From: Bacillus sp. es.036
GTDB taxonomy: Bacteria > Bacillota > Bacilli > Bacillales > Guptibacillaceae
DNA: 64,000 nucleotides
Direction: 5' to 3'
Assembly: GCF_002563635.1 (NCBI RefSeq)
Contig: NZ_PDIZ01000001.1
Span: forward strand, 2,294,001 to 2,358,000
Below the pieces are notes generated by a model. The model searched no databases. It was not told the DNA's origin and worked only from the letters and a program-made list of their open reading frames with translations. The position numbers and the translations under genes are program-made. This document shows, piece after piece, positions 6,726 through 56,102 of the stretch (position 1 is the first letter of the stretch; every line of letters starts with the position of its first letter).

Positions 6726-7115
6726 TTATGAAGTAAACGCTGACTGTTCTTCTCTAACTTTAGGTTTTACAGGTCCCATGCCTCGTGGAAGTTCGATGTT
6801 CTCACGCGTATCCGCTCCAAGTGCATCCGCAATGTAGTTTGCAGCTACGTTTGGATCAAGATCACCACAAGTATACACATCAATACTTGCATACCCATGT
6901 TCCGGGAAACTGTGAATTGTTAAATGTGATTCAGAAATAATAACAACACCACTTACACCCTGAGGTGCAAATTTATGAAATGCTACTTCCCGAACCTCTG
7001 CACCAGACTTAAGAGCAGCTTCAACAAACGTTTCTTCGATAAATTTCATGTTGTTTAATTTTTCAGTGTCACAGCCCCATAGTTCAGCAATGACGTGACG
7101 TCCCATTGTATCCAT
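6726..7115 (-). CDS. speD: S-adenosylmethionine decarboxylase proenzyme
   Basis: Makes decarboxylated SAM, the aminopropyl donor for spermidine. At 129 residues it is the short prokaryotic class that self-cleaves to form the pyruvoyl cofactor. The cleavage serine sits in [12 protein letters not shown] near residue 63, and the conserved Cys in [10 protein letters not shown]. The N-terminus METMGRH-type (here MDTMGRH) matches Bacillus SpeD. The ribosome site is GGGGGAA, nine bases before ATG, and it is complementary to an upstream leader element. The product may serve the membrane aminopropyltransferase at 40060-41604. Confidence 0.96.
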
Positions 7116-40059: not shown

Positions 40060-41604
40060 CTAGTAATACAACCATGCTCGTTCGTATTTTTCGATTAGAT
40101 GAGGTTGAATAAGTGTATTCGGTTCAAATCGAACCTTCTTCCCTTCTCTCATCATCTGTTGATCTTCATCTTTCCCAAACACGCTAAGGGAGGGAATCAT
40201 CTCACTTGATAGAAATTTGGTTTTTACAGCAAGCTTTAGCTTCTCTTGATCTACCGGCTCTCTCGTCCCCATCACAAAACCCCAGTTACCAAAGCTCGGA
40301 ATGTCGACGTGGTAATTCGAAGTGATTAAACCAGTCTCTGCGATCGTGCGATCAATTGTCCAATAAGCTTCTCTTGCAAACAATGGACTTGTTGCTTGTA
40401 CCATTAACGCTCCGTTGATTTCCAAATGATTACGTAACAACGAATAGAATTCCCACGTATACAACTTGTTTAACGATTCATTATTTGGATCAGGAAGATC
40501 AACAATGATCACATCAAATGCTTTTTCTTCTTGTTTAATATATTGAAAAGCATCTTCATTTTTAATTTGAACACGTTTATCTTCAAGCGCATGCTCGTTT
40601 AATTCCGTTAATAAGTGATGTTCTCTAGCGAGCTTCACCATTTCGGGATCTAAGTCTACTACTGTTATCGATTTCACGCGATCATATTTTAAAAGCTCTC
40701 GAACAGCTAGTCCATCTCCGCCTCCCAGTAATAATACATTTTCAGCATTTTGAACTGTCGCCATCGGGATATGAACGAGCGTTTCGTGGTATCGATGTTC
40801 ATCACTTGAACTAAACTGAAGCTGTCCATTCAAAAAAAGTCTAAGATCTCCCTGTTCCCTCGTTAAGGTGATTTTTTGATAAGAAGTTTCTTCCGAGTAA
40901 ATGATTGGATCTTTGTATAAACGCTGCTCAAAAGAGAAAGCCATTTCCTCACCAAAAATTGTACCGACAACCATTAGTAAAAACAAAAGCATTGCTATTC
41001 CAATATAAACAGCTCGATAAACCATCTCTTTTCGAAATGAATAAATCATCCAAAATGCGACGAGAATGTTCACGAGAGCGACAAGGAAAGCTGATTTTAC
41101 AAGGCCAAATTCTGGTCGAAGGTAAAAGGCAAATAATAGTCCCCCTACAAGTCCTCCTGCATAGTCAGAAAAGAGAACTCTTGCTGTACTTTTATTAATT
41201 TCTACACCAATTTCATTCGCTTTTCGAATCAAAATTGGTAGTTCAAGGCCCGTTAATCCGCCTACAATAAGAATGGTCGTATAGAGTACAATAGTAGTTG
41301 CTTCTTCTCCTGCAATTGCCATAATTCCAAATACCGTAAAACTAGAAAACCCACCTATTAAACCAATAAGAAGTTCTATCGCAATAAATCTTGTAATTAA
41401 GTTTTTCACAACTTTTTCACTCAGGGATGCGCCAATCCCCATTCCAGTCAGAAAGAGCGAAATGGTTAACGTATATTGCTTTACACCATCACCTAGTATG
41501 TATGATCCTAGCGCGCCGAACAGCACTTCAAAAATAATTCCGCAGATCGATACAATTCCTGAAGCCCAGTACAACTGACTGCTTTTACTAAACGTCCTGC
41601 TCAT
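40060..41604 (-). CDS. Membrane-anchored spermidine-synthase-like aminopropyltransferase
   Basis: About 514 residues. The N-terminal half (about 10-215) has seven or so membrane helices. The C-terminal half (about 220-500) is a spermidine-synthase fold: DEHRYHETLVH, nucleotide-binding LLLGGGDGLAVREL, acidic VVDLDPEMV, and the catalytic-loop region VIIVDLPDPNNE. It probably transfers an aminopropyl group from decarboxylated SAM to an amine at the membrane. The ATG start has AGGTG six bases upstream. It is the last gene of the PspA/DUF350 cluster. Confidence 0.9.
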   Translation of the reverse strand: MSRTFSKSSQLYWASGIVSICGIIFEVLFGALGSYILGDGVKQYTLTISLFLTGMGIGASLSEKVVKNLITRFIAIELLIGLIGGFSSFTVFGIMAIAGEEATTIVLYTTILIVGGLTGLELPILIRKANEIGVEINKSTARVLFSDYAGGLVGGLLFAFYLRPEFGLVKSAFLVALVNILVAFWMIYSFRKEMVYRAVYIGIAMLLFLLMVVGTIFGEEMAFSFEQRLYKDPIIYSEETSYQKITLTREQGDLRLFLNGQLQFSSSDEHRYHETLVHIPMATVQNAENVLLLGGGDGLAVRELLKYDRVKSITVVDLDPEMVKLAREHHLLTELNEHALEDKRVQIKNEDAFQYIKQEEKAFDVIIVDLPDPNNESLNKLYTWEFYSLLRNHLEINGALMVQATSPLFAREAYWTIDRTIAETGLITSNYHVDIPSFGNWGFVMGTREPVDQEKLKLAVKTKFLSSEMIPSLSVFGKDEDQQMMREGKKVRFEPNTLIQPHLIEKYERAWLYY

Positions 41605-41634
41605 GACTTTCACCTTCAGCTGTTCATTTCTTTT

Positions 41635-42030
41635 TTACGTGATTGATGCTCCTACTACTAAGCCAAGACCAATGGAAACGCACATGGAGAGTATACCTAC
41701 TGATACAACACCTTCACTAAGCTTTTGTTCCACTGAGAAACGCCTTGTAAGAAAATCAAAGATATAATAAGCCACCAATTGAAGAACCACGCCATAGGCA
41801 CCCCATATGACTGTATCGAGAACATCTGAACTATGATAAATGGCGAAAGCTAAGATAAGACAAATTCCAATAATCTTACCACCTATGGATAGCGCAACTG
41901 CCGTATTTCCGTTTTCAACCTGTTCCCAATCCTTGTATTTTGTCGTAATCAATTCAAAAATAATTAATCCAACAACTACAACAACAATCGCTGCAATAAA
42001 ATAAATAAATGTTAATAAAAATGGTCCCAT
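41635..42030 (-). CDS. DUF350-like membrane protein
   Basis: 131 residues with four membrane segments (about 4-26, 46-66, 74-98 and 108-130), matching the DUF350/YjfL pattern, including ALSIGGKIIGI and GAYGVVLQLVAYYIFD. Function is unknown; these proteins recur beside PspA-like and ATP-grasp or polyamine genes. The ribosome site is GGAGG. It sits 30 bp before the aminopropyltransferase, in the same operon. Confidence 0.85.
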   Translation of the reverse strand: MGPFLLTFIYFIAAIVVVVVGLIIFELITTKYKDWEQVENGNTAVALSIGGKIIGICLILAFAIYHSSDVLDTVIWGAYGVVLQLVAYYIFDFLTRRFSVEQKLSEGVVSVGILSMCVSIGLGLVVGASIT

Positions 42031-42049
42031 TATGATGATCCTCCTTCAA

Positions 42050-42610
42050 TTATTTCCCTGTTCCCGGACCGCCGCCGCGACTCGATCCTCGAAAAGACGG
42101 AATCGTTGTCGGTCCTTTATATGTACCACCTGTGGTGCCATATCCTCCATAACAATTCCCGGTTGCGTTCAAACAACGGTTTTTTTGTTTTTTCCCCCAG
42201 TCATCTACATCCAGTATTTCATCTAGAATATAATAAGCTAGTAACCCATCAAAGAAATTAGGTTGGTAGTTATCTCGTACAAATCCAACTGTAGCGACTT
42301 CGACGAGGGTATTCGATGCGTCATCATTTTCTTGCAACGTAACGAGATAGTCATCATAAACGAGAATTTGTTTGCCTTCTTTTAATTCACTGACTTCATT
42401 CGGCTTTATTTGTTCCTGTAAGTAGGAGGCAACAGTAGGGATATCTTCCTCAGCATTGTAAACCTTTGAGACATCGCTTGAATCCACGCTGCTTTCAACG
42501 ACATCTTCAAGCTGATAACGATCTTCGACGATTTCTTGAATATCCTTCGTAATCCCACATGCCGATAAGAGCAGAATGAATGCTGTCAGTAATCCAGTGA
42601 GCCATTTCAT
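42050..42610 (-). CDS. DUF4247-like lipoprotein
   Basis: 186 residues with a signal peptide ending in a lipobox (LLLSAC, Cys18), so it is predicted to be lipid-anchored outside the membrane. The central domain (about 25-140) is acidic. The tail is Gly/Ser/Thr-rich (GGYGTTGGTYKG, SSRGGGPGTGK), like a flexible surface extension. It fits DUF4247 by context and layout. It may be the extracytoplasmic sensor or partner of the PspA and DUF350 proteins. Confidence 0.82.
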   Translation of the reverse strand: MKWLTGLLTAFILLLSACGITKDIQEIVEDRYQLEDVVESSVDSSDVSKVYNAEEDIPTVASYLQEQIKPNEVSELKEGKQILVYDDYLVTLQENDDASNTLVEVATVGFVRDNYQPNFFDGLLAYYILDEILDVDDWGKKQKNRCLNATGNCYGGYGTTGGTYKGPTTIPSFRGSSRGGGPGTGK

Positions 42611-42636
42611 TCTTCCACCCCATTTAAGGGGAAAGC

Positions 42637-43308
42637 TTATTCTTTCCCCATTTTTTTCTTAAGATCTGCCAATTCATCATCGATACCGTCATTTTTGTCA
42701 AGTGCATCAAGCTCATCATCAAGAGAGCGACTTTTCGAACGCATATCTTCACTTGTCTCAGCTTCCGCCTCGTATTGAAGAACTTTTTCCTCCATCCGCT
42801 CAAAACCACGTTTAGAATCATCACCGCCAATATCAGACATGGCACGATTTATCTTCGTTTTCGTTTTGGCTGACTCTGCACGAGCCTTTAGACTATCTTT
42901 CTTCAGCTGCATTTGACGATACTCTTCTTTCATCTCATCTAACTTTGAACGAAGAGAATCTGCATCAGTCTTTGCTCTTTCATAAGATGTCTTCAGTGTT
43001 TCTGCTTTTGCTTCATGATCTTTTTTATCTTGAAGCGCTCTTCTGGCTAAATCATCATTATCAGATTCTAGCGCTTTCATCGCCTGATCCTGGCGCTTTG
43101 AAACCATGGCTTTAGCATCGTCCCATTTCTTTTTTAACATTTTTTCATTCGATATTTGTTTCGCTACAGCTGTTTCAGCATCTCGAATATCTGCTTCCAT
43201 ATCCCTCATAAACTGTTCTAGCATCTTTACCGGATCTTCTGCCTTATCAAGTGCAGCATTTAGTTCAGAAGACATGATCGTTTTAACTCGTTTAAACATA
43301 TTAAACAT
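42637..43308 (-). CDS. PspA/IM30-family protein
   Basis: 223 residues of mostly alpha-helical coiled coil, typical of PspA, IM30/Vipp1 and LiaH: an N-terminal amphipathic helix (MFNMFKRVKTIMSSELNAAL), the DPVKMLEQFMRDME signature near 25-40, and long charged helices (about 60-150). PspA proteins form ESCRT-III-like assemblies that protect damaged membranes. In B. subtilis the pspA operon is controlled by sigma-W, and the same kind of promoter lies two genes upstream here. Confidence 0.93.
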   Translation of the reverse strand: MFNMFKRVKTIMSSELNAALDKAEDPVKMLEQFMRDMEADIRDAETAVAKQISNEKMLKKKWDDAKAMVSKRQDQAMKALESDNDDLARRALQDKKDHEAKAETLKTSYERAKTDADSLRSKLDEMKEEYRQMQLKKDSLKARAESAKTKTKINRAMSDIGGDDSKRGFERMEEKVLQYEAEAETSEDMRSKSRSLDDELDALDKNDGIDDELADLKKKMGKE

Positions 43309-43322
43309 TTGCTATCATCCTC

Positions 43323-43829
43323 TCATTTACTTCCAGCAAGAATTTTAATTTCATACTCTTCAATAGCATATCCTTTGCTTACTTCTACTTCAGAACCCCA
43401 AATTTCTATTGATAGAAAGTTTGTTTCATCTTCATTTGAAAAATCGTGGTATTCTACTTCCTGCCCATTTAAATTACTACCACGCCCAGTCCCTGACACT
43501 TTTGCTCGACCATGTTCTTCTCTATAATACGTAACATCGTCTATGGTTAGCTTTTTTGGTATGGGTCTTGCCAGCTTTTCCTTCACGTTACGATAAATGC
43601 CTAGCTCAAGTTCGTCATCCATTTCGGCACTTAGCCATACCGAGGATGCTCCCGATTTCAGCTGATAGGCGTACCACTTATAGCCATTATTCTGATACGT
43701 CAGTGATCCGACAACTTCATAATCCTCCAGATCATAAGTGACGATATCCCCAACTTGAATCGAAAAAACGGTCCTTTCTTTAATCGTGTTTTCTTCCTTC
43801 TTTCCGAATAATTTTGATAAAAAACTCAT
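43323..43829 (-). CDS. DUF4178-like protein
   Basis: 168 residues from an ATG with GGAGGCGAGG upstream; a longer in-frame start would overlap that site. It begins SFLSKLFGKKEEN. The body is beta-rich with repeated SVQVGDIVTYDLEDYEVV and YQLKSGASSVWLS-type segments, as in DUF4178. Role is unknown, but the domain co-occurs with PspA and DUF350. It is the first gene after the sigma-W-type promoter and 14 bp before the PspA gene. Confidence 0.82.
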   Translation of the reverse strand: MSFLSKLFGKKEENTIKERTVFSIQVGDIVTYDLEDYEVVGSLTYQNNGYKWYAYQLKSGASSVWLSAEMDDELELGIYRNVKEKLARPIPKKLTIDDVTYYREEHGRAKVSGTGRGSNLNGQEVEYHDFSNEDETNFLSIEIWGSEVEVSKGYAIEEYEIKILAGSK

Positions 43830-43856
43830 TTCCTCGCCTCCCATCCCTCATAGTTT

Positions 43857-43884
43857 TATACGAATCATCGCTAAAAAAGTTCCC
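43857..43884 (-). promoter_or_regulatory. Sigma-W-type ECF promoter of the PspA-SpeE operon
   Basis: Minus-strand GGGAAC, a 16-bp spacer starting TTTTTT, then CGTATA. The sigma-W consensus is TGAAAC-N16-CGTATA with T-rich sequence after the -35, so only the first two bases of the -35 differ. The predicted start is about 20 bp before the DUF4178-like ATG. It begins immediately after the stop codon of the upstream 154-residue gene. Confidence 0.7.
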
Positions 43885-43885
43885 T

Positions 43886-44350
43886 TTATTTTTCTGGTTT
43901 TCGATGAGAAACCATTCCCTCTTGCTCAGTATAATAGAAATCCAGTGGGGGTCGTTCTGTTAAGAGAGCTTTCTTTTCCAGTTTAAAGAAGCTGATTTTC
44001 CGAAACGGATCTCCTTCGATGACCGGAGCTTCTTTCTCAGAATGAATGTATAAGTCCACAGCTCTCTGAACTGTATCAATCCAAAATGGAATATGACGGT
44101 GTTGTTCTTCAAAAAGTTCAAACGTCTCTTTCGACATATAAAATGGTTTAGACGGAATACCTCCAAGGTGAGATATAAGAAAAGAAGCATCGAGTTCATT
44201 GTTATCCTTTACAAGAACTTTTAACGAAATACCATCACGTTTCTTTTCTGCGAATTTACCGACTGCCTGCCGTATTTCATGAAGGCTTGCTTCTATCATC
44301 GTTGGATGATCCACTTTACTCTTTTCATTCTTTTTTCTCCAAAATGCCAT
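43886..44350 (-). CDS. Unknown cytosolic protein at head of the PspA cluster
   Basis: 154 residues, soluble, with a basic start (AFWRKKNEKSKVDHP). The central part includes SLHEIRQAVGKFAEK and HIPFWIDTVQRAVDLYIHSE helices, and the C-terminus is charged. The ribosome site is GGGGAGG. No family is assigned. It occupies the position that yjfI holds in the E. coli yjf cluster, but homology is not claimed. It is upstream of the sigma-W-type promoter, so it may be transcribed separately. Confidence 0.75.
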   Translation of the reverse strand: MAFWRKKNEKSKVDHPTMIEASLHEIRQAVGKFAEKKRDGISLKVLVKDNNELDASFLISHLGGIPSKPFYMSKETFELFEEQHRHIPFWIDTVQRAVDLYIHSEKEAPVIEGDPFRKISFFKLEKKALLTERPPLDFYYTEQEGMVSHRKPEK

Positions 44351-56075: not shown

Positions 56076-56102
56076 TACGATGAGACCAAGTTATTGGTTT
56101 CA
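56076..56102 (-). promoter_or_regulatory. Sigma-W promoter of sppA-yteJ
   Basis: Minus-strand TGAAAC, 17 bp, CGTA, the canonical sigma-W elements, with a start about 28 bp before the sppA ATG. The B. subtilis sppA-yteJ operon is a sigma-W target. The rest of the 282-bp gap to the NAD kinase gene holds a small AGGAAG-CGCA-CTTCCT palindrome (56131-56146) and nothing else clear. Confidence 0.8.

What the first reader, a model, noticed from the sequence alone, without database searches (positions are those of the whole stretch)
40060..44350. Sigma-W-type operon combining PspA, DUF350, DUF4178, DUF4247 and a membrane spermidine-synthase-like enzyme
Seen: six same-strand genes with gaps of 14-56 bp; a lipobox protein, a four-helix DUF350-like protein, a PspA coiled-coil protein and a polytopic protein with a spermidine-synthase fold. 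Known: DUF350, PspA-like and ATP-grasp or polyamine genes co-occur, as in E. coli yjfIJKLMC. Inferred: the system senses envelope damage at a lipoprotein, oligomerises PspA at the membrane, and adds aminopropyl groups at or near the membrane. In this version an aminopropyltransferase takes the place of the YjfC-type amidoligase, a variant worth study.
Basis: partly seen in the sequence, partly recalled or inferred. Interest (0 to 1): 0.75.

Follow-up and report, generated by a model that had tools for sequence, protein, structure and literature searches.

The report
SigmaW-driven PspA and membrane aminopropyltransferase operon
A block of five genes that salt- and alkali-tolerant Bacillus relatives probably switch on when their membrane is damaged, pairing a membrane-repair protein with a membrane-anchored enzyme of the spermidine-synthase kind whose job and side of the membrane are still open.

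Summary
The conserved unit is five genes, DUF4178-pspA-DUF4247-DUF350-7TM/SpdSyn, kept in 35 of 38 genomes of the order that carry the enzyme (window included, one enzyme gene frame-split). An exact sigmaW-type promoter precedes DUF4178 in 24 of 34 such fetched loci, with 2 other exact sites in 943,564 nt. In the window a degenerate site lies between DUF3939 and DUF4178, so DUF3939 is probably outside the unit.

PspA and DUF350 with a membrane SpdSyn are in print (PMC11237479). This Bacillaceae form differs: no CesT/Tir gene among the six, DUF4247 with PspA, sigmaW-type control.

The enzyme keeps donor-site motifs but has another acceptor loop. A simple charge-based prediction puts its catalytic domain outside the membrane (51 of 51 at default settings). 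Against: three of 16 genomes with the enzyme show no AdoMet decarboxylase, and its closest solved sequence is ordinary B. subtilis SpdSyn. New variant of a known kind.

The parts
43886..44350 (-). DUF3939 gene (154 aa), upstream neighbour, probably its own unit
   Evidence: Pfam PF13075 160.7 bits; beside the operon in 8 of 53 loci and 3 of 37; sigmaW-like site follows it. A terminator-like hairpin 44476-44452 and a sigmaA-like site 44448-44419 precede it, but such sites were no commoner than in shuffles
43856..43884 (-). sigmaW-like promoter GGGAAC-N16-CGTATAA
   Evidence: same place in 8 of 8 DUF3939-bearing relatives (2 exact, 2 with one mismatch, 4 with two); exact sites upstream of DUF4178 elsewhere
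43323..43844 (-). DUF4178 protein (173 aa), nearly all beta, probably cytoplasmic
   Evidence: PF13785 122 bits; AF2 pLDDT 89.5; no PDB fold match at E<=0.001
42637..43308 (-). PspA/IM30 (223 aa)
   Evidence: PF04012 156.5 bits; a second family member elsewhere in the genome, 57.8 bits
42050..42610 (-). DUF4247 lipoprotein (186 aa)
   Evidence: PF14042 56.6 bits; lipobox-like N-terminus read by eye
41635..42030 (-). DUF350 protein (131 aa, 4 predicted TM)
   Evidence: PF03994 124 bits
40060..41613 (-). 7TM + spermidine-synthase-like enzyme (517 aa)
   Evidence: NF002956 597 bits, cut-off 472; PF01564; AF2 model; Foldseek ranks Thermus triamine/agmatine aminopropyltransferase and thermospermine synthase first by small margins; phmmer ranks B. 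subtilis SpdSyn 1iy9 first
40060..40914 (-). SpdSyn-like domain of that enzyme (residues 234-517), predicted outside the membrane
6726..7115 (-). AdoMet decarboxylase beside a GAPDH-like gene (named by eye), possible donor supply (one of two in the genome)

Best explanation
A sigmaW-controlled envelope-stress operon of five genes. When the membrane or wall is damaged, sigmaW transcribes DUF4178-pspA-DUF4247-DUF350-7TM/SpdSyn. PspA (with DUF4178 on the cytoplasmic side) coats and steadies the inner leaflet. DUF350, the DUF4247 lipoprotein and the 7TM enzyme form a membrane unit in which the SpdSyn-like domain transfers an aminopropyl group from decarboxylated AdoMet to an acceptor that is not free putrescine, probably a membrane or surface amine, making the surface less negative. 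Shown: families, conserved order, conserved promoter in relatives, conserved donor-site motifs, a changed acceptor loop. Inferred: sigmaW dependence in this strain, the complex, the chemistry, the acceptor, the effect on charge, the division of labour.
For: Order kept in 35 of 38 genomes (window included). Exact TGAAAC-N16/17-CGTA upstream of DUF4178 in 24 of 34 loci, one change in 7 (six a base, one a 15-nt spacer), none in 3; only 2 other exact sites in 943,564 nt, both strands counted. In the other sample 26 of 28 exact. SigW over NCBI's cut-off in all 38 and in 112 of 120 overall (p=0.05; G055's copy has an internal stop). AdoMetDC in all 38 and 113 of 120 (p=0.10, so weak). Two of 38 (G015, G075) have no other PF01564 gene; in G075 and Salibacterium (L041/G120) speD lies within about 3 kb. 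GGGDG Asp in 45 of 45 and DxxDP in 44 of 44 with residues there, while the loop that is IPTYPSGLW in the cell's own SpeE is IPSFGNWGF here. B. subtilis pspA-ydjGHI is a sigmaW operon (PMC3498285, passages).
Against: No transcription, enzyme or localisation data. AdoMetDC not found in 3 of 16 genomes with the enzyme (G129 Cytophagales MAG, G130 and G131 Gordonia; completeness of these not told), so the donor may not be dcAdoMet everywhere; the class 2 family search there is uninformative (nothing rang in any control). The closest solved sequence is B. subtilis SpdSyn and the family name is polyamine aminopropyltransferase, which fit a plain polyamine synthase. The window's own -35 is imperfect, and one family (L098, L107, L110) shows no such promoter. 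In G006 and G033 only DUF4247-DUF350-enzyme is found in the fetched stretch, so PspA beside it is not obligatory.
Confidence: 0.5

Rival explanations
1. The enzyme is an ordinary polyamine synthase at the membrane: it makes spermidine or a longer polyamine, which binds and steadies the membrane together with PspA.
For: NCBIfam equivalog 'polyamine aminopropyltransferase' 597 bits over a 472 cut-off; closest solved sequence B. subtilis spermidine synthase 1iy9, E 3.5e-36; donor and catalytic motifs kept; folds like substrate-flexible triamine/agmatine and thermospermine enzymes; two of 38 genomes have no other SpdSyn.
Against: 36 of 38 genomes already carry a canonical SpeE; acceptor loop differs; residue two after the motif Asp is Leu/Ile/Val/Met in 45 of 45, where the spermine synthases of PMC11107197 always have Gly (section 10); per recall of the Li 2019 abstract (Biochem J, not held) such fusions did not replace SpdSyn in E. 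coli.
Confidence: 0.25
2. The enzyme is an AdoMet-dependent methyltransferase acting on exported proteins, as fungal NHMT does.
For: Same plan (about 215 residues of 7TM, then a SpdSyn-like domain) in A. nidulans NHMT, an ER protein that methylates the N-terminal His of secreted proteins (PMC10349129; abstract, passages, sections 9 and 12). Three genomes with the enzyme lack detected AdoMetDC. Predicted topology fits.
Against: NHMT has Ile where aminopropyltransferases have Asp/Glu in GxG(D/E)G; here Asp in 45 of 45. speD near the gene in some genomes. That paper reports the NHMT 7TM sequence only from fungi.
Confidence: 0.15
3. One reading: six-gene unit with a lipoprotein sensor that drives PspA and an aminopropyltransferase, taken here to face the cytoplasm.
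For: Gene content and short gaps. The TopPred-like run on whole proteins gave a cytoplasmic C-terminus for 30 of 51.
Against: DUF3939 is outside the conserved unit and upstream of the promoter-like site; charge bias before the domain favours outside; no evidence for sensing by DUF4247.
Confidence: 0.1

Closest known systems
PspA operons with 7TM-spermidine synthase (second CesT/Tir-PspA group, Ravi et al. 2024, PMC11237479, passages)
   Same: PspA, 7TM-SpdSyn, DUF350, DUF4178 and a lipoprotein in one operon
   Different: There a CesT/Tir gene partners PspA, and the lipoprotein is another family (Ctha_1186). Here no CesT/Tir among the six genes, DUF4247 instead, and a sigmaW-type promoter
DUF4247/DUF2617 variant of the same paper (without the CesT/Tir-PspA dyad); probably what Gordonia L054 shows
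   Same: In L054: DUF4178, DUF4247, DUF350, 7TM-SpdSyn
   Different: In L054 a 181-aa gene, not profiled, lies where DUF2617 would be, no PspA in the block; DUF4178 carries a TM segment; no AdoMetDC found in the two Gordonia genomes
MFS/7TM-SpdSyn fusions with AdoMetDC and DUF350 (Li et al. 2019, Biochem J; recalled, not held)
   Same: Membrane-anchored SpdSyn-like domain with DUF350
   Different: That work started from AdoMetDC; PspA/sigmaW context not part of it, as far as I recall
E. coli yjfIJKLMC
   Same: PspA-like and DUF350 genes with a polyamine-related enzyme (recalled; PMC10948618 passages for YjfI/YjfJ)
   Different: ATP-grasp ligase YjfC instead of a SpdSyn-like enzyme
B. subtilis pspA-ydjGHI
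   Same: pspA operon under sigmaW (PMC3498285, passages)
   Different: Different partner genes
Fungal NHMT (PMC10349129)
   Same: 7TM plus SpdSyn-like domain, acts on secreted proteins
   Different: Methyltransferase; Ile in place of the motif Asp; sequences not compared here

Membership tests
PspA/IM30 | PF04012 over gathering score | tested here: met
   156.5 bits, cut-off 33.9
Polyamine aminopropyltransferase (NF002956) | score over curated cut-off | tested here: met
   597 bits, cut-off 472
Spermidine synthase SpeE (TIGR00417) | score over curated cut-off | tested here: not met
   161.6 bits, cut-off 249.55
Polyamine aminopropyltransferase (NF002956) | GxG(D/E)G and DxxDP motifs | tested here: met
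   Asp300 in 45 of 45; DxxDP in 44 of 44 with residues there
Spermidine synthase SpeE (TIGR00417) | acceptor loop as in the cell's own SpeE (IPTYPSG) | tested here: not met
   IPSFGNWGF; Gly442, Trp444, Gly445, Phe446 each 44 of 44
Polyamine aminopropyltransferase (NF002956) | aminopropyl transfer activity | not testable with these tools
   needs enzyme assay
sigmaW regulon | TGAAAC-N16/17-CGTA promoter (consensus recalled) | tested here: inconclusive
   window: exact -10, two mismatches in -35; exact in 24 of 34 and 26 of 28 loci of relatives
sigmaW regulon | sigW in the genome | tested here: met
   TIGR02948 317.9 bits, cut-off 243.1
sigmaW regulon | sigW-dependent transcription | not testable with these tools
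   needs RNA data
CesT/Tir-PspA-7TM-SpdSyn operon (PMC11237479) | 7TM-SpdSyn, DUF350, DUF4178, PspA | tested here: met
CesT/Tir-PspA-7TM-SpdSyn operon (PMC11237479) | CesT/Tir (DUF2170-type) gene next to pspA | tested here: not met
   no such Pfam match among the nine proteins scanned at E<=1; DUF3939 was not tested by fold
yjfIJKLMC-type operon | ATP-grasp ligase | tested here: not met
   none among the nine proteins scanned
NHMT | Ile instead of Asp/Glu in GxG(D/E)G | tested here: not met
   Asp in 45 of 45

The most novel reading that the evidence does not exclude
The SpdSyn-like domain works on the outer face of the cytoplasmic membrane: a sigmaW-induced, extracytoplasmic aminopropyltransferase that puts aminopropyl groups on exported proteins, lipids or wall polymers next to the DUF4247 lipoprotein, with the 7TM part (invariant Glu124 and Asp150 in or near its helices) carrying or holding the donor. 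It would be a bacterial counterpart of ER-resident fungal NHMT with another chemistry.
Probability: 0.3. Interest if true: 0.85.

Novelty: new variant of a known kind. Interest (0 to 1): 0.5.

Why it matters
Why many bacteria keep a membrane-bound spermidine-synthase homologue beside their normal one is an open question. The Bacillaceae version ties it to a known stress sigma factor and to PspA, in relatives of culturable species, which makes it testable: induce with cell-wall antibiotics, delete, and look for a new aminopropyl modification. If the domain faces outward, a nucleoside-donor reaction at the cell surface would need a donor route that I do not know of, and a new way to change surface charge under antimicrobial attack would be in view.

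Tried and rejected
DUF3939 as operon member: rejected because the conserved promoter lies after it and it is absent beside most operons. DUF3939 elsewhere in those genomes was not searched.

Cysteine avoidance as proof of an outside domain: 1 Cys in 10,809 residues of the domain (37 of the 38 genomes; G077 left out, its gene is split between frames) against 9 in 9,855 for canonical SpeE (36 genomes), p=0.009; but 29 of 36 canonical enzymes and all 34 PspA sequences counted also have none, and non-Bacillota domains have 0-3, so this is weak.

Orientation by homology to MFS transporters: profile comparison not significant (8.6% local probability).

TopPred-like run on whole proteins: 51 of 51 N-in, but 30 of 51 came out C-in because one hydrophobic stretch in the SpdSyn fold was counted as a helix; restricted to the part before the domain, 51 of 51 were 7TM, N-in, C-out at default settings, and 47, 51, 51 and 40 of 51 at four other settings. 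The MFS control was right at both ends in 11 of 14 (true layout recalled), so single calls err. A loop-charge count with helices dropped one at a time favoured C-out in 38 of 45 sequences, C-in in 7. Helix borders and the cut before the domain were set by me.

Fold of DUF4178: no PDB match at E<=0.001. PDB sequence relatives of DUF4178, DUF350, DUF4247 (single sequences) and DUF3939 (profile): none at E<=0.1.

Class 2 AdoMetDC in Gordonia: uninformative.

AdoMetDC and SigW co-occurrence: no genome of the 120 contradicts it, but p=0.10 and 0.05 because both are nearly universal.
Full report
What is there. The window lies in a Pseudalkalibacillus-like genome (closest named relative at this locus P. 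hwajinpoensis AmN0-1, 96% for the enzyme; G000 has 4.34 Mb). On the minus strand from 44350 to 40060 lie DUF3939, DUF4178, PspA, DUF4247 lipoprotein, DUF350 and a 517-residue polytopic SpdSyn-like protein, all over their Pfam cut-offs. Gaps are 41, 14, 26, 19 and 21 bp. Upstream is ald with a terminator-like hairpin at 44476-44452; promoter- and terminator-like sites in this stretch are no commoner than in shuffles. Downstream is a metallo-beta-lactamase-fold gene.

Conservation. One scan of genome contigs with the enzyme gave 53 loci. By phmmer, 36 of the 37 Bacillaceae loci (L007-L042, L047) keep DUF4178-PspA-DUF4247-DUF350-enzyme in order; the 37th (Salibacterium, L041) has PspA divergent and DUF4178 downstream, with a K+-channel-like gene and speD between (the channel named by eye). 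DUF3939 was found beside the operon in 8 of the 53. L059 is a soluble SpdSyn-like protein and not this enzyme. In a second sample, 120 genomes of the order, the 7TM part was found in 38. I fetched the other 37 loci: 34 keep the full order (one, G077, with the enzyme gene split between frames), two (G006, G033) show only DUF4247-DUF350-enzyme in the stretch fetched, and G075 has the Salibacterium arrangement. The two samples share species, so they are not independent.

Promoter. Of 28 loci of the first sample without DUF3939 and with DUF4178 upstream, 26 have an exact TGAAAC-N16/17-CGTA before DUF4178 and 2 have CGAAAC (counted by me from the listing). In the second sample 24 of 34 are exact, 7 have one change and 3, all of one family, none. 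Those loci hold 26 exact sites in 943,564 nt (both strands counted), 24 of them here. Where DUF3939 is present the site lies between DUF3939 and DUF4178: in the window as GGGAAC-N16-CGTATAA at 43884-43856, and in 8 of 8 relatives (2 exact, 2 with one mismatch, 4 with two); in the two exact ones the TGA is also the DUF3939 stop. Two-mismatch sites alone mean little (247 in the window, both strands; one-mismatch 28; exact 1, elsewhere at 56102); shared place, spacing and -10 are the argument. The genome has a SigW over NCBI's cut-off. The sigmaW consensus is recalled; PMC3498285 (passages) shows sigmaW control of another pspA operon in B. subtilis.

The enzyme. AlphaFold2 (45 aligned relatives) gives seven helices up to about residue 233 and then a SpdSyn fold, pLDDT 89.4 (helix count is my reading of the listed elements with the long one split at its kink). 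Foldseek ranks the Thermus triamine/agmatine aminopropyltransferase (E 3.9e-17) and a plant thermospermine synthase before T. maritima SpdSyn (1.1e-15); the margins are small and TM-scores alike. By sequence the closest solved protein is B. subtilis SpdSyn. It misses the cut-off of the SpeE model TIGR00417 (161.6 of 249.55 bits) and passes NF002956. The donor-side motif GGGDG is invariant in 45 sequences and DxxDP is kept in the 44 that cover it; the SpeE loop IPTYPSGLW is IPSFGNWGF here, and QTDNPW is QATSPL. PMC11107197 (section 10) finds that SpdSyn and N1-aminopropylagmatine synthases are not told apart by any of its motifs, so 'not putrescine' is an inference; its spermine synthases have Gly two residues after the motif Asp, where this family has Leu, Ile, Val or Met. 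Two of 38 genomes have no other SpdSyn family member (G015, G075), the other 36 also have canonical SpeE. AdoMetDC is present in all 38 and in 13 of 16 genomes of a wider set (14 reached through loci, plus G015 and G075), missing in two Gordonia and one Cytophagales MAG. In G075, G120 and G122 speD lies within about 3 kb of the enzyme gene, and in G121 next to a second 497-residue homologue. The window's genome has two AdoMetDC genes and a speE next to an agmatinase-like gene.

Which side. Taken with seven helices, Lys+Arg per loop is higher in loops 2, 4 and 6 than in loops 1, 3, 5 and the stretch after helix 7, in Pseudalkalibacillus, other Bacillaceae and non-Bacillota alike; the N-terminus is clearly positive only in the first group (in many other rows it was cut short by the match limits). 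That predicts N-in and the catalytic domain outside: 45 of 45 by fixed helices, 51 of 51 by a small TopPred-like script at default settings. The same script on 14 MFS proteins, whose N-in/C-in layout is recalled, was right at both ends in 11. Results against: on whole proteins it gave C-in for 30 of 51, which I attribute to a buried stretch of the SpdSyn fold; at two stricter settings 4 and 11 of 51 lost a helix and became C-in; a supply of AdoMet-type donors outside Gram-positive cells is not known to me. There is an architectural precedent: fungal NHMT, a 7TM protein with a SpdSyn-like domain in the ER that methylates secreted proteins (PMC10349129; abstract, passages, sections 9 and 12). 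I could not compare sequences with it.

Prior art. PMC11237479 (passages only) describes operons of PspA with CesT/Tir, 7TM-SpdSyn, DUF350, DUF4178 and a lipoprotein; a variant with DUF4247 and DUF2617 without the CesT/Tir-PspA dyad; and the idea that PspA systems monitor polyamines or aminopropylation. The passages I saw do not mention a Bacillaceae form of this operon, sigmaW control of it, or the side of the enzyme; I did not see the whole text or the supplements. My searches listed no other paper that I recognised as reporting this unit; only open-licence papers are searched, and searches listed 15 of 83, 15 of 58 and 12 of 3,599.

Judgement.

Noticed in passing
L040 1276-8530 (Halobacillus massiliensis): The block appears twice in tandem, the first copy with a shortened enzyme match; could be real or an assembly artefact.
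   Followed up: no
L041 10321-11741 and L124 9776-11184: A K+-channel-like gene and speD sit next to the rearranged operon in Salibacterium and in G075, like the K+ channel and AdoMetDC mentioned for other PspA/DUF350 operons.
   Followed up: partly
L054 and L056 (Gordonia): DUF4178 carries an N-terminal membrane segment, followed in L054 by Arg residues, which fits a cytoplasmic DUF4178 domain; no AdoMetDC found in either genome.
   Followed up: partly
L045, L046, L049, L050, L051: ORFs upstream of the 7TM enzyme, some on the other strand, begin with zinc-ribbon-like paired-cysteine motifs; one of them (L050) matched DUF4178.
   Followed up: no
L004 1516-3306: The genome's second AdoMet decarboxylase lies next to a squalene-cyclase-like gene (named by eye).
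   Followed up: no
window 56102, minus strand: The only exact sigmaW-type site of the window lies here, away from the operon; the gene behind it was not examined.
   Followed up: no
G077 / L126: The 7TM enzyme gene is split between two frames; left as found.
   Followed up: no
L120 6613-8109: Two DUF350 genes flank DUF4247 in this operon.
   Followed up: no
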